From Sycon ciliatum (taxonomy: Eukaryota; Porifera; Calcarea; Leucosolenida; Sycettidae), in the NCBI RefSeq assembly GCF_964019385.1, contig NC_088645.1:26141189-26205188 (forward strand): 64,000 nucleotides of DNA, in the 5' to 3' direction. Shown here piece by piece: positions 4,365 to 56,457 of this stretch (position 1 is the stretch's first letter; the number at the start of each line of letters is the position of its first letter). A program made the position numbers and the translations under genes. The notes beneath the pieces are model-generated. The model was not told the origin of the DNA, ran no database searches, and saw only the letters and a list, made by a program, of their open reading frames with translations.

Positions 4365-5735
4365 ATGTCTGCAAACAGGGATTCCACGACCATGGCCGCA
4401 GTAGAGAGCGATGAGCACGAACAGCCGTGCGATGTCCCAGATAATCGTTTCCCCACGTCGAACTGCTGCCGCGATTTCCACAACGCTCTGGCGGTGATAA
4501 TGGATATGCTTGATGCCGAAAGAAGTGCTGCTGCAGACCGTGAGAAAAGGCTGATAAGCCATATCGACCAGCTATCTAGGACCGTTCAGGAGCTATCCAG
4601 ATCAAGCGCACCAAACATTCCAAGTTCAGGAAGTTCCGCCATTACGGTTGGAGATTCTCAGGCTCAGAGCAAGTCGCAAAGAAAGAGGCGCCATGCTACT
4701 AACTGCCCAACCGTTGAGTCCGAAACCAACCCGAATACCGTAGTAGATCTACAACTGACTTCATCTGGTCCGGCCCAGCAGGATGCTGCGGCCACGTGTC
4801 ACATTCCAGTCGGGAGCGGACCTACCGTACCAGGACATGACCTCAGTGACCTGGATCATCACCAACGCGTGGGTGTCACGTCGAACGTTCAAACTACCGT
4901 AAAGTACCGCCAGAGCGCCCCACCATCTCGTCCTTTCGTGGCCGCCTTGTGGAGGTGGATTCCTGTCTGTAGGTCATACGACACGGACCTTGTACAAACA
5001 TTGCACATTGTGCAGTCAATCCGTACCCAGTTTACCTTCGAGCTCCACATAAAAACATGCCAAGTGTGACCTTAGTACACGAAGGTTCTCACATCGTACA
5101 AACTTAGTAGCATTCTGCCATACGATTTTCTTCCCTTGGCTGTAAAATCAAGGTGGGGCGCTCTCGCGAGACGGGGCGCTCTGGCGGTACTTTACGGTAC
5201 TAGTAATTCGAACTCCAAGACCAACACCAACATTCAAACTTCAGCTTATGCAGCCAGTGCAGTCAGTGAGGCCAATTTGCCAGACGTCGATGACGACAGT
5301 GAAGATGCTGCCTGGCGTTTGGTGACAGCCAGGAAACCTGTCAAGAAAAGTGTTGTGTTTGTTGGCAATCTGCTGCGCGATGCCTCACCGGAGCAGCTAG
5401 CACGCTTCGTGGAGTGTCGCTCGTCGGAGCTGAAGACTCCCCCTATTAAAATTCTCGACTGTAAAGTTTTTCAGAAGCAGAAGTCGTCGTCTGCGAGACT
5501 GGTAGTCCACGCATCGCGCAGCAAGACGCTGTTGGATCGTTGCTTCTGGCCCAGACCACTCTATTCTAGACAGTGGAATTTCGACAAGTACTCTGCCTCT
5601 GATGTCAGTGATGATACCACAGAAACCACAGCATGTGACGACACGCAAGCAAACTCTGCATCCCTTTCGGAAGTGAAAACAAATGTGCACGCGCCCTCAG
5701 TCAGCGATGGCTCTGAAATCAACCATGCCTGCTGA
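4365..5735 (+). pseudogene. LINE ORF1 protein, split by a MITE
   Basis: The first half encodes a heptad-like, charged segment (residues about 35-80, with LDAERSAAADREKRL) likely to form a coiled coil. The second half (from about 5280) encodes an RRM-like fold start, SVVFVGNLLRDASPEQL, then a basic stretch, as in the RNA-binding ORF1 proteins of CR1/L2 elements. An in-frame stop at 5067-5069 lies inside the inserted MITE (4897-5197). The insertion plus its TA duplication is 303 bp, so the two halves stay in one frame. Without the insert the protein would be 355 residues. Its last bases overlap the ORF2 start as TGATG. Confidence 0.75.
4897..5197. mobile_element. 301-bp MITE inserted in LINE ORF1
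   Basis: The terminal inverted repeats begin CCGTAAAGTACCGCCAGAGC on the left and mirror this at 5171-5197 on the right. TA dinucleotides flank both ends (4895-4896 and 5198-5199), the target duplication of Tc1/mariner-type elements. The interior has no transposase. The insertion breaks ORF1 by a stop codon but preserves its frame. Confidence 0.8.
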
Positions 5736-8531
5736 TGACCATGCTGCACACTGCCTTCTTGAATGTATGTAGTATCAGGCGCAAGACAGCCGAAGTGCAA
5801 AAGTTCTTGTCAAACAGAGGCATTCATGTCTTTGGTATGGCTGAGACTTGGCTCACTCCAGATATCTTGGACAGTGAACTTACTATCCCACATTTCAAGC
5901 TCCATCGGAAGGATAGATTGCAGCAACGTAGTGGTGGTGTTGGGATATACTGCCATGAATCTGTTCTTGCGCGAAGACGCACTGACTTGGAGACTGACTT
6001 AGAGCTGCTGTGGATAGAAGTTAGCGTTTCCGATGGCATAGTGCTGGTTGGATGCTGTTATCGTCCACCAGACAATCCTGTAGCATTCTGGACCTCCCTG
6101 GAGTCCAACCTAGACGCATCAGTTCATGCACCAGGTAAGAAGGTTCTGGCAACTGTCATGCTGGGTGATTTCAACGTTGATATGAAAATGAACCAGTCAC
6201 CCATGGCCATACGAGTAACTGACTTGTTTAACAAATTTGGTATGTGTCTTCACCAACACGTGCCACCACCCTTACTAAGTCAATCATTGATCTCTTCCTA
6301 TCAACTTGCCCGCTGACGGGGCCTTGTGAGATAGTCTACCTAGACATTAGTGACCACTTTGCAGTACTTGGGAATCTCTCTGTGGCAGGGTTTGCACCAG
6401 GCCGTACTTCCAGCTACAGACCTACACGCCGCATCCATAAGATAAACTGGGACACCTTCAACAGCGATCTCAGTGTAGAGCAGGCCTCTCTGCTCGCCAT
6501 AGATGATGTCAACACCCTTGCATCATCTTTCATCGCCTCCATAGTGTCAACATTGGATAAGCATGCACCCGTGCGGATGAGGCGAATTCGGGATAGACGT
6601 CCCTGCCCGTGGGTAACAGATGAACTTGTGGCCTGCGTACGGGAGCAAGACAGACTCCATCGACTGCTCATGAAGAACCGCTGCAATGATGACCTCCGCA
6701 GTCAACACCGCACTGCTCGTGCCAAGGCCAGGAAGCTGGACAGGAGCCTGAAGAACACGTATTTCATCCAGCAGTGGCAGACTTCTGACCAAAGTAAACT
6801 TTGGTCAGTCATCAATACTGTGGTTGGCCGGAAGAAACAATCGCACACTGCTCAAGTACCCATATCGGATCTTAGCAAGCTGTTTGGTGACGTTGTCCAT
6901 GATCCCCATCGTCCTCCTCAGCTCTGTTCTCCCTCTGGTCCAATGGCGGAAGGGGCATTTACCGACTTCAGTGTAGTGACAGTCGAGGATGTGGCAAGCA
7001 GTTTGAAATCAGTCAACCCTTTCAAGGCAACAGGCAGTGACCAAGTTCCAAGCATCATCCTGAAAAAGTGTTATCCAACCATTGCCCCCACACTTACACG
7101 CATCATTAATATATCCCTGTCCTCCAGTGAGTTCCCCCTGTCCTTCAAGTTGTCCCACGTCAGTCCGCTCTTCAAGAGTGGAGACCCAGCTTTGCCAAAG
7201 AACTACCGCCCTGTGTCACTGCTCCCAGTTATCTCCCGCATCACAGAAGCATTTGTAAAAAATCAGATCACGCAGTACTTGGACTCCAAGCAACTTCTTC
7301 CGCCTACTCAGTTCGCCTACCGAAGGCTTCACTCCACAGAAGATGCCTTAACGTTTGCTGTTGATCGATGGCAAATGGCACGGGCAGAGCGCAAGTATAC
7401 GGGCATCGTGTTTGTCGACATGTCAAAGGCCTTTGACCGCGTCAGGCATGAGCGACTCGTTACTAAACTGTTTAACCTAGGCATCTCGGGAACTGCACTC
7501 AACTGGTTCTGCAGTTACCTGTCTGGCCGGACACAGCAGATCAAATTGCAGGATCAGTTGTCAGGGACTGTTCCTTGCTCTCGCGGTGTTCCGCAGGGCA
7601 GTGTCTTAGGCCCACTCCTGTTTGTAATTTACACTGCTTACGTCAAGTCAACGATGCCTCCCGATGAGGCAGATCAGGAATTCGCTGATGACATCGCTCT
7701 CGATTGCTCCAACGCGTGTCCCAAGCAAGTCTGCGAGTCTCTGTCGTCTGCAGTGACCAACCTCGCCAAGTGGCTAGATGACATCGGCCTACTTCTGAAT
7801 GCCCAGAAAACCCAAATTCTGTTTGTAAAGCTAAGAGGCGGTGCTGATGTTCAAGAACATGTACGTTGTCGAGGACAACCCCTGGAAGCAACAATATCTG
7901 CGAAATACCTGGGTGTTGTAATCGACAATGACCTCTCCTGGCAGCCACATATCAGCCATGTAACACGCAAGATCGGGCCAGTAATTGGACAGCTATGGCG
8001 ACACGGCAGGTCCCTGAGCCTAAGAGCACGCCAAGTCTGGTATGTCAGCATGATACAGGCTCATCTGTCCTATGGATCCAACTGTTTCTTCTCCAGTCTT
8101 TCCAAGCAGCTCCTGGATAAACTCCACCGCCTGTCAAAATCCGTGTCAGAGCGACCCTGCAGCAAAGGACTCTGGTCCCGACTGCCCCCCTTCTCGAGCT
8201 CCTGGGTGTGCCAAGCTTGCCACAGCTGCTCTTCCAGAAGCTTGCCATCTTCGTTTTCAAATGTTTAAATGACAAGACAAGTCCCCTGTTAAAGAATCTG
8301 TTCGTGCTGATCAACGACCCTGCCACACCTCAGCTGAGGACGACATGGGGTCAAGTGTCAAGCCTGCTGAGAGTTCCGTTCCTCCCTGGTCCTGCTGGAC
8401 GTCCTTCAATTCAGTTTGCTAGCAGCATTCTGTGGAATGCTCTCCCAGTTGCAGTCCGTACGGAAGGTGATTGGCAGACATTTAAAGCTCTAGCCACGGC
8501 TCTCGACTTGCCCAGCCTTTACCCATATTAA
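5735..8531 (+). pseudogene. LINE ORF2: endonuclease and reverse transcriptase, two frameshifts
   Basis: Residues from 5735 encode an apurinic-type endonuclease (FLNVCSIRRK, AETWL, GGVGIY, CCYRPP, GDFNVDM, then SDHFAVL further on), used to nick target DNA. The RT follows, with PKNYRPVSLLP, QFAYRRLHSTEDAL, VFVDMSKAFDRV, RGVPQGSVLGPLLF and the catalytic FADD near 7683. A C-terminal domain ends in WNALPVAVR. A 2-base duplication (TG) near 6244 shifts frame between endonuclease and RT, and a second shift of one base lies near 8140-8150. Start choice: the ATG overlapping the ORF1 stop. Confidence 0.85.
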
Positions 8532-10089: not shown

Positions 10090-10144
10090 TTTCATACGAC
10101 GAACGTTTTGCCGTATAGATGAGGACGGCTCATCAGGTGTGCAA
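10090..10144 (-). ncRNA. decayed hammerhead ribozyme motif
   Basis: On the minus strand the order is stem I, CTGATGA (10130-10136), a 5-bp stem II GCCGT/ACGGC, then AAAA where the core needs GAAA, then CGTTCGTC and the other side of stem I. The first base of the GAAA box has changed, and stem I has two mismatches, so cleavage is not expected. The match to the intact motifs near 47.3-48.2 kb marks this as an old copy of the same family. It lies between two repeats of a GGAGAGCCA-rich segment (9980 and 10159). Confidence 0.6.
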
Positions 10145-10382
10145 GAATTGACTCGGATGGAGAGCCAAAGATCAATTTAGAGAAAATAAAAAGGACCAAG
10201 GCACCAAGGATGAAGATATTATTCAGGCCTCCGGTTTCGCATGATTCCTGTTCGCATAGCTTCCCCTTTAATTGATCTTCGCATCTTTGCGCCACACCAG
10301 TTGTGTGGAATGTTGCATTCCGTCCTTGTATCGTGGTTTGACCGTATTGTCCAAAGGTCTTGCCCTTATCGTAATCGACGTA

Positions 10383-11118: not shown

Positions 11119-11909
11119 CGTGTACATCCGCCAACGTCCTTAACAGCTGAGATTTTCGGCCGGTGCTTATCTTCGTTGCGTTCACCTTCCCCTCTTTGTG
11201 TTACCTCTATAACTTAGAACGTTCCAAGATGTGCTAGAGCTGATTGCCAGTTAGGTGTAGAACGTCAGTACCGTTGGTCTGTGCCGTGCAAAATAACAGA
11301 AATAATTAGACAAAGATGATGGCCTTAGCTTTCTAGACTTTAGAATGAATCAATCTGCGAACAGCACTGTCGCATCTTTTGTGGACTCTCCTCAGCCTAA
11401 CACAGAGAAACTAATGTCAAACCTGATAGAGCCTGAGAGATTATTGATTTACGGGATATGCTCAATCTGCGGACGGAACTGTTTCGTCCTTGTGGACTCA
11501 TCAGCGCAGCACAGAAAAAATGACGCCGAGCCTGGGAGCAACTGAATTGATCAAGCCAAAAAGCAAAGGGTAAAAACCAAGTAAGTCTGACAGATGACAC
11601 AGAAGTATTGCAAAATTGAGACCTATGAAAAAAAAGAATGTAAGTGTGACAAGTGGGCATGAAAAGTGCCGGACCAAATCATAAACAAGTGATGTAGACT
11701 CACGAAAATAACCCAAGTGCTACAACATACTCTTTTTGCTTACAAAGATCAGGCTTTTGCGCACGAATACGAATAGCTTCCAGGAACTCCGGCTGCTGTA
11801 AATAACGGGCAAGACACATTACGGAGAGTCGTACACACACACACAATCGGGACGTGATAACAAAATTAATGCAAGTACTAACGAACTTCACCCTCATCAA
11901 CTCGCTCAC
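11119..11909. other. non-coding stretch with an imperfect tandem duplication
   Basis: A segment starting CAATCTGCGAACAGCACTGT (11348) recurs imperfectly 115 bp later as CAATCTGCGGACGGAACTGT (11463), with GTGGACTC-TCAGC and CACAGA shared in both. Nothing else recognisable is seen here. Confidence 0.45.
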
Positions 11910-14875: not shown

Positions 14876-14984
14876 TTTTAGTAGCAGTTTCCATTAGTCT
14901 TTCTCAGTCCTGGGTCTTGCTAGTACCTCTGGCGTTTCGTCTCTCAAATATAGTGAAATAATTATTTGAAATTTCCGTTTCGGC

Positions 14985-17900
14985 ATGGCGGAATCAGACA
15001 CACCAGTACTCAGCCCTGACATTGTTGCCCTCACCCAGCTCATTAGACAGCAGATGGAGACCGCCGCCACCCGCGAGCAACACCTGACACAGCTCGTGGA
15101 GCGAACTTTGAGGAGCATTTCTCAACCTCCACCACTGCAACGTCCACCGTCAGCCCCACTGGCACGAGAACATATACCTGCGGCGAGACCAGTTTCGGTC
15201 GATCGCCCTCTGTTACTTGCCTCTGCTTCTCTCGCAGAGTTTGCCGCATGGGAAGGTCTTTGGCGGGACTACTCCCGGTGCCAGCACCTGGATTCCCAGG
15301 ACAATGCCACCAGAGTGGCAACGGTTCGTCAGTGCCTGGACGCGGACCTCCGGAGATTTCTTCGTGAGGGCACAATTCCTCTGGCTGACAACCACGACGA
15401 CGACGATCTCATCAAGGCTGTACAGGCATACATTCGTGGCCAGCCTAACCCTCTGCTGGACCGGATCGCCTTCTATGCCCGCCAACAGCAGCATGGAGAG
15501 TCTTTCGATCACTACCTGACTTCCCTCAGGGAGATCCACAATTGCTGCGATTTCAGCGAAGCTGCAGCACTCTGCAACTTCTGTTCAAGCAGAGTATGCC
15601 GCCAATGCCAGCAGGGACAGCGTACCAGGTACGACGAAACCATGCGTGATCGCCTGGTTACTGGCATTCTCGACACGGAGACACGCCATAAGCTCCTTGC
15701 CACCACCGATCTAACGTTGGAGAAGGTCATTAAATTGTGTCGAGCGGAGGAGGCAGCCTCTCGGACGAGCAGCAGTATCCCCGGCACTAGCTCCGTCAAT
15801 GCCGCTCGGAAAACAAATTATCAGCGGTCTAAACACGGCAATAACCCGCGACAGCAACAGCCGTCCGCCACGCCATCGCAATGTCCAAATTGTGGTCGCA
15901 CTCTCCACGCCAGCAGGTCGCAGTGTCCTGCACATGGCAAGAAGTGTAGCGGCTGCAAGACTATTGGACATTTCCAAGCGGTGTGCAGAAAATCCCGCAA
16001 ACCGGCTGACCAGTCCTCGCAGCGCACGCTGGGACGACTACAGCTCCGCCGCGCTCAGTGTGACGCATCTCCTACGGTGCTAGTCGACACGCAATTGTGC
16101 ACTGAACCTGACGTTACCTCCCCCGAATGGATCCCCGATACGGGAAGTGACATTGACGCTATTGGCGTCGATCAGTTATTGCATCTCGGTGGTTTTGTGG
16201 AGAATCTGGCCACAGACCATGATAATGTGCATGCTGCCAATGGTGAACGTCTCGTTTCAGCTGGCAAGATCTCTGCCACTCTCACCATCGGCTCGCTCAA
16301 GCATGATAGCACCATCCATGTGTACCGTGGACTGCGTGAACCCCTGTTGTCACGCCAATCGCTATACGCCTTAGGCCTCTTACCAGACGGCTGGCCCAAG
16401 CAAGTTGCGCGTGTTAGTACCAGCAGCACACCACCTCCAACGGCTCCCGTTGTGACGACCGGTCTCGTGAACACACCTGACCCTAGCAAGCTGGCGCAGA
16501 TCCGTGCTGACCTACTGCGAGAGTTCGCAGACGTCTTTGACGACACGACATTGAAACCCATGTGTGGCAAGCCAATGGACATCATTCTCGAAGATGATGC
16601 GAAACCTCACCGAGTCTACACAGCTCGTCCTATCGCACATGCCTACCATGAGCAGGTGAAAACCCAGCTCGACATAATGGTTGAGGAAGGCATTATCGAG
16701 ACAGTGTCAGAGCCGTGCGACTGGTGCCACCCCATTGTTGTAGTCGACAAGAAGAATTCTAGTGAGAAACGTCTGACTGTGGACCTTCAGTCTCTCAACC
16801 GACAAGTGAAGCGTCCCACCTACCCCATGCAGAACGCACGTGATGCTCTCTCTGGCATCGGCACAGCCCGATGGTTCACCAAGTTTGACGCCCGTCATGG
16901 CTATTGGCAGGTGCCCCTGTCTGAGTCTGCCAAGTCTCTCACTACGTTCATCACACCGTGGTGTAGATACCGATTCTGCCGGAATCCACAAGGTCTTGTG
17001 TCCGCCGGCGATGAGTACAACCGCCGCACCGACGCAGCTTTCGACCGTTTGACCCATCTCATTAAGGTGGTGGACGACGGCCTCGTTCACGATGAGTCAT
17101 TCTCGGACCATGTCGCTCACGTCCGTGCCGTCCTGACCCGAGCACGCGAACACGGAATTAATCTCAGTCAAAAGAAGTTTGTCTTCGCCGCTGCTGAAGT
17201 CGAATTCTGTGGGTTTCATGTGTCGTCCAACGGATATACCGTGCCAGCTGACAAGACATCCGCTCTTCAGCAGTTCAACCTACCCACCAATCGTACCGAC
17301 CTCCGTTCCTTCCTCGGTCTGGTGAATCAGTGTGGAGAATTCACCCCACGGATATCCGAGCTGGAAGCTCCGCTACGTCCGTTATTGAAGACCACGAATG
17401 AGTTCGTGTGGGATGATGTCCACACCGCGGCTTTCAACGCCACAAAGTCTGAACTGATATCACCGCCGACTCTCTCGTACTACCGTGCTGGTGACGACCT
17501 TCGGCTAGAGACCGACGCCTCTGCCCTGAACGGACTTGGGTTCGTGTTATGGCAACGCCAAGATAATCAGTGGCGCATGCTGCAGTGTGGCAGCCGATTT
17601 CTCACCGACGCAGAGACACGTTATGCCGTCATAGAACTGGAGTTATTTGCTGTGGTTTGGGCTGTCCACAAGTGCTCCCTCTTTCTGTCTGGCAGCCGAT
17701 TCGATTTGTTCACTGACCACCGTTCATTGGTCCCGATTCTGAACAAGTACACCCTGGATCAGATAGAAAATCCACGTCTGCTACGCCTCGCACTGAAGCT
17801 CCGGTCGTTTCAACTCGTCGCGCACTGGCGCAAGGGCAAAGAGAATGCGTTTGCTGATGCACTGTCCCGTAACCCGGTCGACAAGACGACCAGTGAGGAA

Positions 17901-19283
17901 GAATTCGGTGAAAGCTCAACGCTCTCAGCACCAGCCATCAGAGCATGTCTCCACCAGGGAGAGGATGGCCGAATTGCAGACCTCCGGCACTGCGAGCTCT
18001 TGGACGCTGCCCGTGCCGATGATGACTATCAGGCCCTTCTCCAAGCCGTTCGTGAAGGTTTCCCTGATGATCAGCGCGCCGTCCACTCAGCTGTGAAACC
18101 GTACTTCACTATCCGCGAGCATCTTTCAGTCGACGGTGATCTTGTCCTGAAAGTCCAACGTGTTGTGGTCCCGCGTACCCTCCGCCCACGTGTGCTCCAG
18201 GATCTTCATGCCTCCCACCAAGGCCTCAACCGCACACAGCGTCGAGCTCGACAAGTCGTATACTAGCAACACTTGTCTAATGACATCGCCCAAGTCGTTC
18301 GCAGTTGCGAACAGTGTCGCTTGCACGCTCCGTCTCAGTGTAAGGAACCGATGCGTGTCACCACTGACCGCCGTCCCACCCTGCCATTCCAGTCAACCAG
18401 TGCCGACTTATTTTCCTGTCAAGGCTGGGAATACCTGGTTTACATCGACCGTCACACTGGCTGGCCTTGCATCGCCAAGATCGGCCGCACTGCATCTTCT
18501 GCCGATGTGATCCGTGTGTTCCGTGGCTGGTTCGCCGACGTCGGTGTCCCCAGCATCCTCACCACTAATGGTGGTCCGCAATTTTCATCACGTCGCTTCG
18601 CTGAATTTTGCACCGGATGGCAAGTTGAGCACTCCACGTCTTCACCTCATTATTCTCGATCTAATGGCCATGCCGAAGCCGCCGTGAAAGCGATGAAATC
18701 ACTTGTGTTGAAGACTACGTCCGACGGTAACTTGGACGTCGATGAGTTCAGACGCGCATTGTTAGAATGGCGCAACACCCCCCGAGAAAATGGTCAGAGC
18801 CCAGCCCAAGCACTGTTTGGTCGACCATTGTCCTCCTTCGTGACAGCTCATCATCTTAGCTTTGCTCCTGATTGGCAAGCAAAAGCCACCGATGTTGACA
18901 AGCGCTCTGCCGCTCAGTCTGCCACCCAAGAACAGAATTATGATGAGTCTGCCAGATCACTGTCCCCACTTCGCATTGGCATGCGGGTTGACATCCAAGA
19001 TCCGCGCACCAAACTCTGGCGCACCACCGGCGTGGTCATCGCCATTGGTCGCAACCGGGACTATATGGTGAAGTTATCCAGCGGCCGTGTTTACTGGCGC
19101 AACCGTCGCCTTCTCAAGCCTGCCCCTGCCGTAGCCCCTCCCGCTCCGCCTGCAGACACCTCCCCGGCTGAGCCCACAGCACCGCAGCAGCCTTGTGTGC
19201 AGCAGCCTCGTTGTAGCCAACGGTCTGGCCAGGCACCAGAGCGTTTGAACATTTCGTCCGCAGCATCTAAGTCCTATGCTTGA
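14985..19283 (+). pseudogene. Ty3/gypsy gag-pol polyprotein with one in-frame stop
   Basis: One frame covers gag (capsid-like region, then a cysteine/histidine knuckle region at residues about 299-335), protease (DTGSD near 385), RT (the catalytic site reads VVDD near 696), RNase H (ETDAS near 842) and integrase. A TAG at 18264-18266 interrupts the integrase zinc-binding region where the family usually has tryptophan; the same frame continues to 19283. In the integrase core the catalytic positions are D1141, N1195 and E1231. The spacing fits D,D(35)E, but the second Asp is replaced by Asn. A GPY/F-like C-terminal segment follows. The copy is inactive as it stands. Confidence 0.92.
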
Positions 19284-21313: not shown

Positions 21314-22969
21314 AGTATTGAAATGAAAACAAGTATTGAAATGAAAACAAGTATTGAAATGGAAACAAGTATTGAAATGGAAACAAGTATTGAAATGAAA
21401 ACAAGTATTGAAATGAAAACAAGTATTGAAATGGAAACAAGTATTGAAATGAAAACAAGTATTGAAATGCAAACAAGTATTGAAATGAAAACAAGTATTG
21501 AAATGCAAACAAGTATTGAAATGCAAACAAGTATTGAAATGAAAACAAGTATTGAAATGAAAACAAGTATTGAAATGAAAACAAGTATTGAAATGAAAAC
21601 AAGTATTGAAATGAAAACAAGTATTGAAATGGAAACAAGTATTGAAATGAAAACAAGTATTGAAATGCAAACAAGTATTGAAATGGAAACAAGTATTGAA
21701 ATGAAAACAAGTATTGAAATGCAAACAAGTATTGAAATGAAAACAAGTATTGAAATGCAAACAAGTATTGAAATGCAAACAAGTATTGAAATGAAAACAA
21801 GTATTGAAATGAAAACAAGTATTGAAATGAAAACAAGTATTGAAATGAAAACAAGTATTGAAATGAAAACAAGTATTGAAATGGAAACAAGTATTGAAAT
21901 GAAAACAAGTATTGAAATGAAAACAAGTATTGAAATGGAAACAAGTATTGAAATGAAAACAAGTATTGAAATGCAAACAAGTATTGAAATGAAAACAAGT
22001 ATTGAAATGCAAACAAGTATTGAAATGAAAACAAGTATTGAAATGAAAACAAGTATTGAAATGAAAACAAGTATTGAAATGGAAACAAGTATTGAAATGA
22101 AAACAAGTATTGAAATGAAAACAAGTATTGAAATGGAAACAAGTATTGAAATGAAAACAAGTATTGAAATGCAAACAAGTATTGAAATGAAAACAAGTAT
22201 TGAAATGCAAACAAGTATTGAAATGAAAACAAGTATTGAAATGAAAACAAGTATTGAAATGAAAACAAGTATTGAAATGGAAACAAGTATTGAAATGAAA
22301 ACAAGTATTGAAATGAAAACAAGTATTGAAATGGAAACAAGTATTGAAATGAAAACAAGTATTGAAATGAAAACAAGTATTGAAATGAAAACAAGTATTG
22401 AAATGAAAACAAGTATTGAAATGAAAACAAGTATTGAAATGAAAACAAGTATTGAAATGAAAACAAGTATTGAAATGAAAACAAGTATTGAAATGAAAAC
22501 AAGTATTGAAATGAAAACAAGTATTGAAATGAAAACAAGTATTGAAATGAAAACAAGTATTGAAATGAAAACAAGTATTGAATTGCAAACAAGTATTGAA
22601 ATGAAAACAAGTATTGAAATGAAAACAAGTATTGAAATGAAAACAAGTATTGAAATGGAAACAAGTATTGAAATGAAAACAAGTATTGAAATGAAAACAA
22701 GTATTGAAATGAAAACAAGTATTGAAATGAAAACAAGTATTGAAATGAAAACAAGTATTGAAATGAAAACAAGTATTGAAATGAAAACAAGTATTGAAAT
22801 GAAAACAAGTATTGAAATGAAAACCAGTATTGAAATGAAAACAAGTATTGAAATGAAAACAAGTATTGAAATGAAAACAAGTATTGAAATGAAAACAAGT
22901 ATTGAAATGAAAACAAGTATTGAAATGAAAACAAGTATTGAAATGAAAACCAGTATTGAAATGAAAACA
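21314..22969. repeat. 18-bp minisatellite, 92 units
   Basis: The unit AGTATTGAAATGAAAACA repeats head to tail 92 times with no length change. Nearly all variation is at one base (ATGAAA, ATGGAA or ATGCAA), and the order of these variants repeats in blocks, showing higher-order duplication. Because 18 is a multiple of three and no frame has a stop, long open frames run through on both strands (605, 657 and 568 codons); these are by-products. The paralogous site near 32050-32090 has only one to two degenerate units. Confidence 0.97.
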
Positions 22970-22984
22970 AGTATTGAAATCCAC

Positions 22985-44282: not shown

Positions 44283-44850
44283 GACTGACAAGGATGTGGA
44301 AACATTCGACGACCGAACACCTTGCTGCGACACGGTATAATTATTGTGATGTGATGTAGATTCATAGATTTGTTGGAGCTAGGTGTCAGGTCGTCGAACG
44401 TTTCAATATCCTTGTCAGTTATGTGCCTTGTTGGCACACTATCTGACTGTATATTACCTCGTTACCATGGTGGACTGTTAGTCATAACTAGTGACTAGTA
44501 GAGAATTTTAAAAATCTTTACATGTACCTACTATTGTTATTCACATTGCATTTTCATCACAGGTATTTCTTTGTCCGTGATATTTCAATAAAACTTTCGT
44601 GAAATAATGCTTCAGCTGGTTCTGCTTTTTGCAATCCTTTAACAGTCGTCACTTCTTCACCTTTTTGCATAGGGCCCTATTAGCAGTTCTTGAGAATATT
44701 TTGGTTAGTGTTTCCCAACTTTCCTCCAAGCCTTGTTGTCGTACTATCTGACTGTACGTTTTCTCGTTACCTTGGTGGACTATTAGACTATTAGTCATGA
44801 CTAGTAACTTATAGGCCCTTTTCTCTTTACATGTTACTACTACTGTTCTA
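44283..44850. repeat. diverged relatives of the retrozyme-like repeat
   Basis: 44283-44313 and 44388-44420 form an inverted repeat (ACTGACAAGGAT against ATCCTTGTCAGT). The stretch CTAGGTGTCAGGTCGTCGAA through TATCTGACTGTA and GGTGGACTGTTAGTC matches the monomer at 48595-48720, and a second relative lies at 44735-44840. No hammerhead core is retained here. Confidence 0.55.
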
Positions 44851-46582: not shown

Positions 46583-47283
46583 GTAAAACGTCCGAGCTCC
46601 AGGAGCTCCTCTATCTCTTTGATGTCGCAGTTCCGTGACGTCATGGTGGCGCCAAAAACAGGGGACCTAAGTGATCTGTCAGCTGCGTACTTCTCCGGTT
46701 ACAGTCACAGGATGAAGACGAGACATAGACCATTTCAATCGGCTGATTTTTCCTCAATAACATAATAATTATTATCTGTAGAAAGGAAAAGGACATATGG
46801 AAACGAGTTAAGAGTAACTCCCCACCACTGTAACTAGATACTATAAAACAGTCAGAAAGTGCAACAACTAGGCACAAAACTGACAGAGTACTAAGACATT
46901 CGACGTCCTGACACCTAGCTTCAACACACCTCCGTAGCGCTAACCCACAGCCTTCCAACTTGGAAGGTTCAAGGTTATGGAAAGACCAAAGAGGGGAAGG
47001 TAAGCGCAACGAAAACGAGGACAAGCTACAGTCCCAACGGAACAAAGAATGTCGATTGTCACTGGACGATGACGAGACCAGTAGGCGATTTGACAAAGCG
47101 GTCTAACTACAATTCGAAGCAGCAAAGCAGCACACCACCCAACTTGGGTGGGTCAAAAATATCAAAGATAAGTTAAGAAGGGGGAAGCTTTGCGAGAACA
47201 AATTGTACAAGCCGAAATCTAAACTCCTACAGTTGTCCTCATGCATGACACTGTGATGGACTAGTTGACTACAAAACCAGTTG

Positions 47284-47338
47284 TTTCACACGACGTACGT
47301 TTCGCCGTATGGTTCGTGACGGCTCATCAGGTTTGCAA
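47284..47338 (-). ncRNA. hammerhead ribozyme motif (stem I weakened)
   Basis: Minus strand: CTGATGA (47324-47330), perfect stem II GCCGT/ACGGC with a 10-base loop, GAAA (47300-47303), then the self-complementary CGTACG and the cleavage triplet ending in TC. Stem I pairs at six of eight positions. The core residues are all present. Confidence 0.75.
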
Positions 47339-47869
47339 TTTGAAACTCGGGTATTGAGCCAATAATAAAATTAGAAAGGAAAAGGACATAATGGAAACGA
47401 GTTAAGAGTAACTCTCCACCACTGGAACTAGATACAGTCACAAAGTGCAACAACTAGGCACAAAACTGACAGAGTACTAAGACATTCGACGTCCTGACAC
47501 CTAGCTTCAACACATCTCCGTAGCACTAACCGACAGCCTTCCAACTTGGAAAGTTCAAGGTTATGGAAAGACCGAAGAGGGGAAGGCAAGCGCAACGAAA
47601 CCGAGCACAAGCTACAGTCCCAACGGAACAAAGAATGTCGATTGTCACTGGACGATGACGAGACCAGTAGGCGATTTGACAAAGCGGTCTAACTGCAATT
47701 CGAAGCAGCAAAGCAGCACACCACCCAACTTGGGTGGGTCAAAAATATCAAAGATAAGTTAAGAAGGGGGAAGCTTTGCGAGAACGAATTGTACAAGCCG
47801 AAATCTAAACTCCTACAGTACTCCTCATGCATGACATTGTGATGGACTAGTTGACTACAAAACAAGTTG

Positions 47870-47924
47870 TTTCACACGACGTACGTTTCGCCGTATGGTT
47901 CGTGACAGCTCATCAGGTGTGAAA
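47870..47924 (-). ncRNA. hammerhead ribozyme motif, all stems paired
   Basis: Minus strand: stem I TTTCACAC/GTGTGAAA is perfect over eight pairs (47917-47924 with 47870-47877). Core CTGATGA is at 47910-47916. Stem II GCTGT/ACGGC has one G-U pair and a 10-base loop. GAAA is at 47886-47889. CGTACGTC follows, with predicted cleavage after the C complementary to 47878. Stem III is tiny and palindromic, as in the minimal hammerheads of Penelope-like elements and retrozymes, which are thought to act as dimers. Confidence 0.85.
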
Positions 47925-48177
47925 TTTGAAACTCGGGTATTCTTTCCACAACCTTCAACCTTCCAAGTTGACAGGCTGTCGGTTAGCGCTACGGAGATGT
48001 GTCGAGCTAGGTGTCAGGACGTCGAATGTCTCAGTACTCTGTCAGCTTTGTGCCTAGTTGTTGCACTTTCTGACTGTATATAGTATCTTGTTACAGTGGT
48101 GGAGAGTTACTCTTAACTCGTTTCCATATGTCCTTTTCTTTTCTACTTCTATTATTGGCTCAATACCCGAGTTCAAA

Positions 48178-48232
48178 TTGCACACCTGATGAGCTGTCAC
48201 GAACCATACGGCGAAACGTACGTCGTGTGAAA
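48178..48232 (+). ncRNA. hammerhead ribozyme motif, plus strand
   Basis: CTGATGA is at 48186-48192, stem II at 48193-48197 and 48208-48212, GAAA at 48213-48216, and CGTACGTC at 48217-48224 with predicted cleavage after 48224. Stem I 48178-48185 pairs with 48225-48232 except one G-A mismatch. The core is intact. Confidence 0.82.
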
Positions 48233-48766
48233 CAACTTGTTTTGTAGTCAACTAGTCCATCACAATGTCATGCATGAGGATTACTGTAGGAGTTTAGATT
48301 TTGGCTTGTACAATTCGTTCTCGCAAAGCTTCCCCCTTCTTAACTTATCTTTGATATTTTTGACCCACCCAAGTTGGGTGGTGTGCTGCTTTGCTGCTTC
48401 GAATTGTAGTTAGACCGCTTTGTCAAATCGCCCTCTGGTCTCGTCATCGTCCAGTGACAATCGACATTCTTTGTTCCGTTGGGACTGTAGCTTGTCCTCG
48501 TTTTCGTTGCGCTTGCCTTCCCCTCTTTGGTCTTTCCATAACCTTGAACCTTCCAAGTTGGAAGGCTATCGGTTAGCGCTACGGAGATGTGTTGAAGCTA
48601 GGTGTCAGGACGTCGAATGTCTCAGTACTCTGTCAGTTTTGTGCCTAGTTGTTGCACTTTCTGACTGTATATAGTATCTATTTACAGTGGTGGAGAGTTA
48701 CTCTTGACTCGTTTCCATATGGCCTTTTCCTTTCTACTTTTTTTATTGGCTCAATACCCGAGTTTC

Positions 48767-49279
48767 AAATTATTATCTGATTTTGACTTTAGGGTGAACT
48801 TCCCCTTTAACAGCTAAAAATAAAGTAATAAGCCCTCGAGTTGAGAAAGAGCAGGAGATGCTATTACACATTTTGGTGGAAGAGTTTGTGGAGCGATTTC
48901 TGGGCATAACGCAAAATCGAGTGGAATTCTCACTTTGATACCAGCATGCACAGTAGTAAGAGATAGTACCCGACAAAACAATACACTCTTGCATTATTGG
49001 ATTGCTTACTCTGTTCACGTCAAGCGCTTATTATCTGGAGCTGTATTTGATGTGTTTGAAAGAGGGGACATGCTTTTTTCAAAACCTTCCCACCTGTAAG
49101 TACATGCACATGAAACCTAGTGGCACGGAAATAAAGGTAACATAACGGAGATCCATATTAATTTTCATGATTCCTTCTCCATCGTTGTCAGATGGTGCTG
49201 ATTTTCGTGTTTGGCAAAACGCATTATATAGCGATAGTGACACACCTCCTCGCGCTGAAATGCCGTGTCTGTGAAAAGG
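48767..49279. other. no recognisable feature
   Basis: Short AT-rich sequence with no domain-bearing ORF and no repeats recognised. Confidence 0.4.
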
Positions 49280-55585: not shown

Positions 55586-55696
55586 AACAACGAAAAGATT
55601 CATCAAGAGACAGCAGCGGACCCAACATTAGTGTTGCACAATATTTATGTTCCATTACGCGCAACTGTGTTATTATTAGTATTATTTTTATAACCC

Positions 55697-56450
55697 CATA
55701 GCTCAGTGGTTAGAGCATCGCTAGCTACAAGCGAGGGTCCCTGGTTCGAGTCCTGGTGGTGACAGTCAATTTTTTCTTCAGACTTTTCCCGTTTGTCTCT
55801 TTCCCTCGAAGTAGTGAAGATTTTATGAATTGGGGCTCCCCGCGTGCTAGAGTGTACGTGAAGTGTGTGGGTACAGTGAGGGCTGCGTCCCACCTGCCTG
55901 TGTGGATTCACAGGAAGTGTGAGTTACGAAGTCTGAAGAAAATGCTGAACAGTCTCTGCTGGGATGACGACTACACCATAGCTCAGTGGTTAGAGCATCG
56001 CTAGCTACCAGCGAGGGTCCCTGATTCGAGTCCCGGTGGTGACAGTCAATTTTTTCTTCAGACTTTTCCCGTTTGTCTCTTTCCCTCAAACTAGTGAAGA
56101 TTTTATGACTTGGGGCTCCCCGCGTGCTAGAGTGTACGTGAAGTGTGTGGGTACAGTGGGGGCTGCGTCCCACCGGCCTGGATTCACAGGAAGTGTGAGT
56201 TACGAAGTCTGAAGAAAATCTTGAACAGTCTCAGCTGGGATGACGACTACACCATAGCTCAGTGGTTAGAGTATCGCTAGCTACAAGCGAGGGTCCCTGG
56301 TTCGAGTCCTGGTGGTGACAGTCAATTATCAATTAAGTCAATTAAGATTGTATGACTTGGGGCTACCCGCGTGCTAGAGTGTACGTGAAGTGTGTGGGTA
56401 CAGTGAGGGCTGCGTCCCACCCGCCTGTGTGGATTCACAGGAAGTGTGAG
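55697..56450 (+). repeat. tandem array of three tRNA-like 280-bp repeats
   Basis: GCTCAGTGGTTAGAGCATCG starts at 55701, 55981 and (with one change) 56257. Each head has an A box, a TCGCT/AGCGA anticodon-type stem, and the B box GGTTCGAGTCC (GATTCGAGTCC in unit 2). A body of about 205 bp containing GTGTACGTGAAGTGTGTGGG follows. The anticodon-like loop lacks U33, so these are not functional tRNAs. The third unit has an internal deletion. Partial multimers on the minus strand occur at 22985-23280 and 32090-32400. Confidence 0.85.
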
Positions 56451-56457
56451 TGCTGTT

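What the first reader, a model, noticed from the sequence alone, without database searches (positions are those of the whole stretch)
47284..47924. Tandem hammerhead ribozymes 586 bp apart: a retrozyme-like element
On the minus strand, two hammerhead motifs with complete cores (CTGATGA, stem II, GAAA, cleavage site) lie exactly one monomer (586 bp) apart in a non-coding tandem repeat. One has a perfect 8-bp stem I and a fully paired stem II. Established knowledge: animal retrozymes are tandem non-coding repeats with type I hammerheads that yield small circular RNAs, mobilised in association with Penelope-like elements. The monomer here would release a 586-nt RNA if transcribed through both.
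Basis: partly seen in the sequence, partly recalled or inferred. Interest (0 to 1): 0.88.

Follow-up and report, generated by a model that had tools for sequence, protein, structure and literature searches.

The report
Hammerhead-ribozyme jumping element, two-armed insertion
A small non-coding jumping element carrying a self-cutting RNA motif has inserted in this eukaryotic genome as two mirror-image arms, a signature that points to the Penelope class of mobile elements copying a small, possibly circular, RNA into both strands of a cut in the DNA.

Summary
Two minus-strand hammerhead (HHR) cores 586 bp apart are real; a third, on the plus strand, was missed. All three belong to one insertion, 46779-48771: two head-to-head arms between copies of ATTATCTG (8 bp, up to 12 with ambiguous bases). 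It is an old, decayed copy of a family, F1 (monomers 586-596 bp); a 48-mer holding F1's commonest HHR form occurs 989 times in the 538-Mb genome.

F1 is retrozyme-like but inserts like a Penelope-like element (PLE). One arm ends at site a, the other at site b, ~33 nt apart: 14 of 14 script-resolved pairs, and 19 of 22 in a second, slightly overlapping set; of the 3 a/a pairs two are shown and one is inferred to span more than one insertion. A PLE here has the same short/long ends in the same (ATT)n target. Monomers of one insertion, both arms, trace to one parental monomer, as expected if one circular RNA is copied from both cut strands.

Not shown: which PLE moves F1, RNA circles, cleavage.

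The parts
46779..48771 (.). whole insertion (1993 bp, GC 0.446), two head-to-head arms
46771..46778 (+). left target-site duplication ATTATCTG (12 bp AATTATTATCTG, 46767-46778, if ambiguous bases are counted)
48772..48779 (+). right target-site duplication ATTATCTG (12 bp form 48768-48779)
46779..47940 (-). minus-strand arm; outer end at site b (short end)
47941..48771 (+). plus-strand arm; outer end at site a (long end, about 33 nt further along the monomer than site b)
47286..47336 (-). hammerhead A: core and stem II intact, stem I damaged; predicted cleavage between 47292 and 47291
47870..47924 (-). hammerhead B: core, 8-bp stem I, 5-pair stem II; predicted cleavage between 47878 and 47877
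47292..47877 (-). the 586-nt monomer between the two minus-strand cleavage sites

Best explanation
An old insertion of a non-autonomous, retrozyme-like element (F1). Proposed cycle: tandem copies are transcribed; the hammerheads cut the RNA into ~590-nt monomers, which are closed into circles (inferred from metazoan retrozymes). A Penelope-type reverse transcriptase/endonuclease cuts both strands of AT-rich DNA, often an (ATT)n microsatellite, and both 3' ends prime on one circle: one strand starts at site a, the other at site b about 33 nt away, both just 5' of the hammerhead. Each polymerase runs round the circle for less or more than one turn, giving two arms of identical monomers. The cDNA ends are joined, often at overlaps of 1-6 nt, leaving a head-to-head inverted pair between target duplications. 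Shown: the ends, their pairing, the arms, the targets and the within-insertion identity. Inferred: cleavage, the circle, one circle feeding both arms, and which PLE acts.
For: One end site per arm: 14 of 14 pairs resolved by script, out of 23 head-to-head pairs in 20 C1 loci plus the window; 19 of 22 neighbouring pairs on C1+C2, 0 b/b, label-permutation p 0.0005 (2 of the 22 are loci). The 3 a/a pairs: C1:2633275 is two insertions, C1:82084474 is two, C1:60874982 has HHRs in the order +,+,+,- between its ends (not fetched). Sites a and b beside (AAT)4 or (ATT)4 have 327, 459, 131 and 160 listed matches, some counted twice; a mid-element 14-mer beside (ATT)4 has 0. Variable columns within insertions: 148 private, 8 shared; between insertions 3829 and 3392. 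11 of 23 inner junctions overlap by 1-6 nt. PLE copies with GIY-YIG above cut-off and a weak RVT_1 match in one piece are present; PLE1 and PLE2 show short/long end pairs and PLE2 the (ATT)n target (read by eye). Published: a purified PLE protein cuts and extends both strands with two adjacent internal start sites (PMC11167929); a 31-bp tail optionally on one of two inverted pLTRs (PMC3846280). HHR stems differ between families yet pair. The L009 F1 monomer as a circle is more stable than shuffles (z -5.5).
Against: No PLE with a 3' end like F1's was found: F1's tail is no closer to the PLE1 or PLE2 tails than shuffles. In PMC11167929 the start sites did not appear to differ between top and bottom strands, start sites were not homologous to the cut DNA (here they often abut matching ATT), HHR mutants did not affect insertion, and no reads began or ended at the HHR site; so an allotted site per strand and a need for the ribozyme are not supported by that system. 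Inner arm ends do not favour the cleavage site: two apparent cases shrank to one when read. A transcript of a young homogeneous array would also give identical monomers. The predicted fold of the isolated F1 motif is a competing hairpin (-14.2 against -8.9 kcal/mol for the hammerhead). The window monomer's circular fold is weaker (z -2.7) and F2's is not unusual (z +1.65). Six of the 23 pairs have at least one outer end that is neither a nor b even by eye. Loci were chosen by exact HHR cores on one contig. No RNA data.
Confidence: 0.72

Rival explanations
1. F1 is the terminal repeat (pLTR) of an autonomous PLE not yet found, deposited as ORF-less copies, not a separate circle-forming element.
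For: The insertion signature is PLE-like. PLE1 and PLE2 pLTRs carry HHR-like motifs that I read as minimal HHRs.
Against: F1 arrays of several full monomers with no ORF between them occur (e.g. L009, L014). In PLE1/PLE2 the HHR lies upstream of the end sites; in F1 the end sites lie just upstream of the HHR. BLAST found no F1 match in the PLE1 pieces and no significant tail similarity in PLE2; the ends of only two PLE families were read.
Confidence: 0.15
2. Same element, but the template is a linear multimeric transcript of a young tandem array, not a circle.
For: Arms cross several uncut HHRs. In one PLE tested in vitro, HHR mutants did not affect insertion (PMC11167929).
Against: Monomers of one insertion rarely carry alleles that segregate in the family (8 of 156 variable columns), also in the older insertions that supply most of those columns (window 2 of 49, L010 2 of 28, L025 2 of 20, L011C 0 of 16).
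Confidence: 0.25
3. An ordinary satellite, or a canonical retrozyme moved by another non-LTR element, that happens to hold HHRs.
For: The same genome has a canonical-looking family F3 (226-228 bp) that mostly ends at one site about 12 nt after the cleavage site, mostly in one direction.
Against: F1 uses two end sites, one per arm, unlike most F3 copies; F1 copies are dispersed and some have target duplications.
Confidence: 0.05
4. Head-to-head arms come from later recombination or assembly error rather than from the insertion event.
For: Inverted repeats can be misassembled in principle.
Against: Where readable, target duplications flank the pair of arms, not each arm (window; L010, L011A, L011C, L023A by eye), and the a/b pairing recurs at separate loci on two contigs.
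Confidence: 0.03

Closest known systems
Metazoan non-LTR retrozymes (PMC7229834, parts 1-4 of 6 read)
   Same: Non-coding tandem monomers with a type I hammerhead, GC below 50%, target duplications, many copies; circular RNA presumed here by analogy.
   Different: Monomer 586-596 bp against ~170-400 nt; head-to-head arms with two end sites are not described in the parts I read.
Penelope-like elements (PMC11167929, parts 1-2 of 4 read; PMC3846280, passages)
   Same: Head-to-head inverted copies, a short and a long (tail) end about 31-36 nt apart, AT-rich targets, target duplications of 8-10 bp in the passages (8-13 bp here), hammerhead in the repeat.
   Different: F1 has no ORF; its HHR has a short helix III with a palindromic loop and lies just after, not before, the end sites.
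F2 in the same genome (352-bp monomer, this work)
   Same: Type I HHR; at L001 one arm ends at 240 and the other at 278 with a 13-bp target duplication (by eye); monomers identical at L017.
   Different: Unrelated body; only one complete two-end pair seen, and L008 has an arm ending elsewhere (321). Its tail resembles the PLE1 tail (3 of 2000 shuffles as good; 109 of 2000 for PLE2), which F1's does not.
LINE-1 twin priming (recalled, no call)
   Same: Inverted 5' part after priming from both strands.
   Different: As recalled, the second primer lands at varied places; here both start sites are fixed.

Membership tests
Type I hammerhead ribozyme (Rfam RF00163) | Score above the family's gathering cut-off | tested here: not met
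   Window copies 28.2, 24.3, 19.3 bits against 34; 4 places elsewhere in the genome, F3-like, reach 34.6-34.9
Type I hammerhead ribozyme (Rfam RF00163) | Conserved core with helices whose pairing is kept while sequence changes | tested here: met
   Core in all three copies; stems I and II differ between families but pair (a list filtered for pairing); stem I is broken in copy A
Type I hammerhead ribozyme (Rfam RF00163) | Self-cleavage | not testable with these tools
   Needs in vitro transcription
Metazoan retrozyme | Non-coding tandem repeats with type I HHR | tested here: met
   longest open stretch 86 codons in the L009 and window monomers; no Pfam match to the 153-aa open stretch at 46644-47102
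Metazoan retrozyme | Monomer about 150-450 bp, RNA ~170-400 nt (PMC7229834) | tested here: not met
   Nine spacings from four loci: 586, 591, 592, 596 bp
Metazoan retrozyme | GC below 50%, target duplications longer than 4 bp | tested here: met
   GC 0.43-0.45; 8-12 bp
Metazoan retrozyme | No LTR, primer binding site or polypurine tract | not tested
   No search for these motifs was made
Metazoan retrozyme | Loop 1-loop 2 tertiary contacts | tested here: inconclusive
   A 10-nt loop II and a mismatch in stem I are seen; contacts cannot be read from these tools
Metazoan retrozyme | Abundant circular RNA | not testable with these tools
   No RNA reads available
Penelope-like element | ORF with RT and GIY-YIG endonuclease | tested here: not met
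   No long ORF in the F1 monomers; GIY-YIG in PLE1 and PLE2 and weak RVT_1 in a further PLE piece
Penelope-like element (mode of insertion) | Inverted copies with a tail on one of them, target duplication | tested here: met

The most novel reading that the evidence does not exclude
One ribozyme-made RNA circle is reverse-transcribed from both strands of a Penelope-type double cut, with the two start sites allotted one to each strand, so that each insertion is a two-armed, often multimeric copy of a single circle. This would make PLEs the engine of retrozyme spread and the two-start-site rule a part of the PLE mechanism.
Probability: 0.5. Interest if true: 0.8.

Novelty: new variant of a known kind. 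Interest (0 to 1): 0.62.

Why it matters
The papers I saw name PLEs only as candidates for moving animal retrozymes (PMC7229834, parts 1-4 of 6; PMC7761336 and PMC11722881, passages). The insertion ends here tie a hammerhead element without an ORF to the PLE mode of insertion, contrast it with a canonical-looking family (F3) in the same genome, and supply hundreds of natural insertions from which the two-strand priming rule can be read. They also give a sequence-only test for a circular template.

Tried and rejected
Rejected or withdrawn: (1) That two arms begin exactly at the HHR cleavage site (notes): reading the junctions showed that L017 runs about 15 nt past the site and that only L014 begins at or within a base or two of it, about what chance gives for some 46 inner ends. 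(2) That the F1 piece at L013 8234-8299 is the 3' end of PLE2 (written in a note): one search shows it fused to two tRNA-like repeats; corrected. (3) That F1's tail is homologous to PLE1/PLE2 tails: no better than shuffles (the local alignments ran, the script then failed before the global ones). (4) The C291 GIY-YIG hit: its flank reads like bacterial UvrC (my reading), probably a contaminant. (5) The exact 39-nt F1 core in viral contigs: 0. (6) PLE3: the pieces fetched did not reach its ends. The organism was not identified. Two papers asked for are not held: PMC4209133, PMC5785218.

Limits of counts: the 20 loci were picked by me from the first 100 places listed, all on contig 1. One search counted one L023 pair from two neighbouring insertions as 'within'. 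One search left out matches under 82% identity or 60 nt and trimmed match ends; 'shared' means at least two alleles each found in two or more other insertions. One search uses only C1 and C2 (listings stop at 100 places), only exact ends, neighbours within 5 kb, and rows that I removed when doubled. Counts include some loci twice, since L001-L007 and L050 overlap L009 or neighbours. Target duplications other than the window's, the PLE ends, and the a/b reading of L010, L011A and L023A are by eye. PLE2's RT part was not read; its 902-codon open frame is, which scored only 150 of 2716 candidates.

Full report
What is in the window. Two hammerhead cores lie on the minus strand 586 bp apart, as reported, and a third on the plus strand. 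Repeats and alignment to the monomer show one insertion, 46779-48771: a minus-strand arm (46779-47940, HHRs A and B) and a plus-strand arm (47941-48771, HHR C), head to head, between copies of ATTATCTG. Rfam gives sub-threshold hits to Hammerhead_1 for all three, none at gathering. The copy is old: its segments are 91-96% identical to each other and copy A's stem I is damaged.

The family. The window lies in an unnamed 538-Mb genome. The wide core pattern has 2202 matches there, the reversed pattern none; the 48-mer with the commonest F1 HHR form has 989 exact matches. Nine same-strand spacings between F1 cleavage sites, from four loci, are 586, 591, 592 and 596. Other HHR families in the genome are F2 (352 bp), F3 (226-228 bp) and smaller ones. 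Between them stems I and II change in sequence and stay paired, which supports the fold; that list was filtered for pairing and holds some loci twice, so it is not an unbiased count. RF00163 matched in 0 of 14 control genomes.

The ends. Among 20 loci that I picked from the first 100 places, plus the window, the script found 23 head-to-head pairs. Both outer ends are at a (monomer ~545) or b (~512) in 14, and in 14 of 14 one arm has a and the other b. Of the other nine, three are a/b when read by eye (L010, L011A, L023A); six have at least one end elsewhere, perhaps through truncation, nesting or age. A second set takes the listed exact a and b ends beside (AAT)n or (ATT)n on contigs 1 and 2 (141 a, 39 b) and gives 22 neighbouring head-to-head pairs within 5 kb: 19 a/b, 3 a/a, 0 b/b, permutation p 0.0005. 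Two of the 22 (one a/b, one a/a) are loci of the first set. One a/a pair is two insertions and one; the third has HHRs in the order +,+,+,- between its ends, which one head-to-head pair cannot give, but it was not fetched. A mid-element 14-mer beside (ATT)4 has 0 matches, against 327, 459, 131 and 160 for the four end patterns, some counted twice. Of 23 inner junctions 11 overlap by 1-6 nt.

One template per insertion. Segment identity is on average 99.0% within arms (38 pairs), 98.5% between the arms of an insertion (39 pairs) and, as a median, 94.9% between loci (1378 pairs). Where monomers of one insertion differ, 148 of 156 variable columns are private and 8 shared; between insertions the figures are 3829 and 3392. 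In L009 nine segments of both arms show no variable column. So each insertion derives from one monomer sequence. A circle copied more than once round explains this directly; a transcript of a very homogeneous array remains possible.

The PLE link. A PLE endonuclease piece finds at least 150 places in the genome, some in open frames of 902-918 codons (only 150 candidates were scored). GIY-YIG is above its cut-off in PLE1 and PLE2 pieces; RVT_1 is weak and below its cut-off in a third piece (E 1.1e-4), with YIDD visible in the translation. PLE1 at contig 1 ends short on one side and about 36 nt longer on the other, with a shared flank of 7-11 bp (by eye). PLE2 ends short on one side and 31 nt longer on the other, both in (ATT)n (by eye). 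In PMC11167929 (parts 1-2 of 4 read) a purified PLE protein cuts and extends both strands and starts at two adjacent internal sites; but there the sites did not appear to differ between strands, were not homologous to the cut DNA, and HHR mutants did not affect insertion. PMC3846280 (passages) describes a 31-bp tail optionally on one of two inverted pLTRs, with TSDs of 8-10 bp. F2's tail resembles PLE1's (3 of 2000 shuffles as good); F1's does not. So the mode of insertion is PLE-like, and the acting PLE is unknown.

F3 as contrast. Of 21 loci fetched by Rfam score, 20 have F3-like matches (L039/L040 and L045/L046 are near duplicates). Most end about 12 nt after the cleavage site and run in one direction; L047 has a head-to-head case, and L048 and L049 differ. 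The two-site, two-arm pattern is therefore not a general property of HHR repeats here.

Folding. As circles, against 60 shuffles each: F1 of L009 z -5.5, window monomer -2.7, F2 +1.65, F3 -2.5. The isolated F1 motif prefers a 9-bp hairpin that hides the cleavage site; its pairing is 9 of 9 in 54 of 56 F1-like motifs and 8 of 9 in 2 (found by their core, some loci counted twice). Whether this is a switch is speculation.

Literature. Searches listed no paper whose title or abstract start describes head-to-head, two-end-site insertion of retrozymes; I saw listings, and read only the papers named here in the parts named. Most subscription papers are not held. PMC7761336 and PMC11722881 (passages) propose PLEs as mobilisers of animal retrozymes or as their ancestors. 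Passages of PMC7936874 and PMC6431247 were also seen.

Noticed in passing
window 55693-56451; also L011, L013 8298-8819, L015, L017 7432-8059, L045 1902-3046: A ~280-bp tandem repeat with a tRNA-like sequence, in which Rfam finds tRNA but no hammerhead, often abuts (ATT)n tracts; at L017 it lies head to head with an F2 array and at L013 two copies are fused to an F1 tail. Perhaps another template of the same machinery.
   Followed up: partly
window 11472-11504 (minus): An F3-like hammerhead copy; F1-like fragments lie at 10098-10377, 11164-11231 and 44366-44492.
   Followed up: partly
F1 HHR, e.g. window 47870-47924: The 3' part of loop II and stem II can pair with the 3' strand of stem I over 9 bp, hiding the cleavage site: a possible on/off switch.
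   Followed up: partly
G000:C1:78524354-78539400 and C1:97529571-97543053: PLE2-like endonuclease hits in arrays with a period of about 2935-2938 bp, several in 902-codon open frames.
   Followed up: no
window 21314-22980: An 18-bp tandem repeat with 92.6 copies, 97% matches.
   Followed up: no
window 14970-19283 and 5717-8268: Retroelement ORFs: RT, RNase H and integrase in the first stretch; endonuclease/phosphatase family and RT in the second.
   Followed up: no
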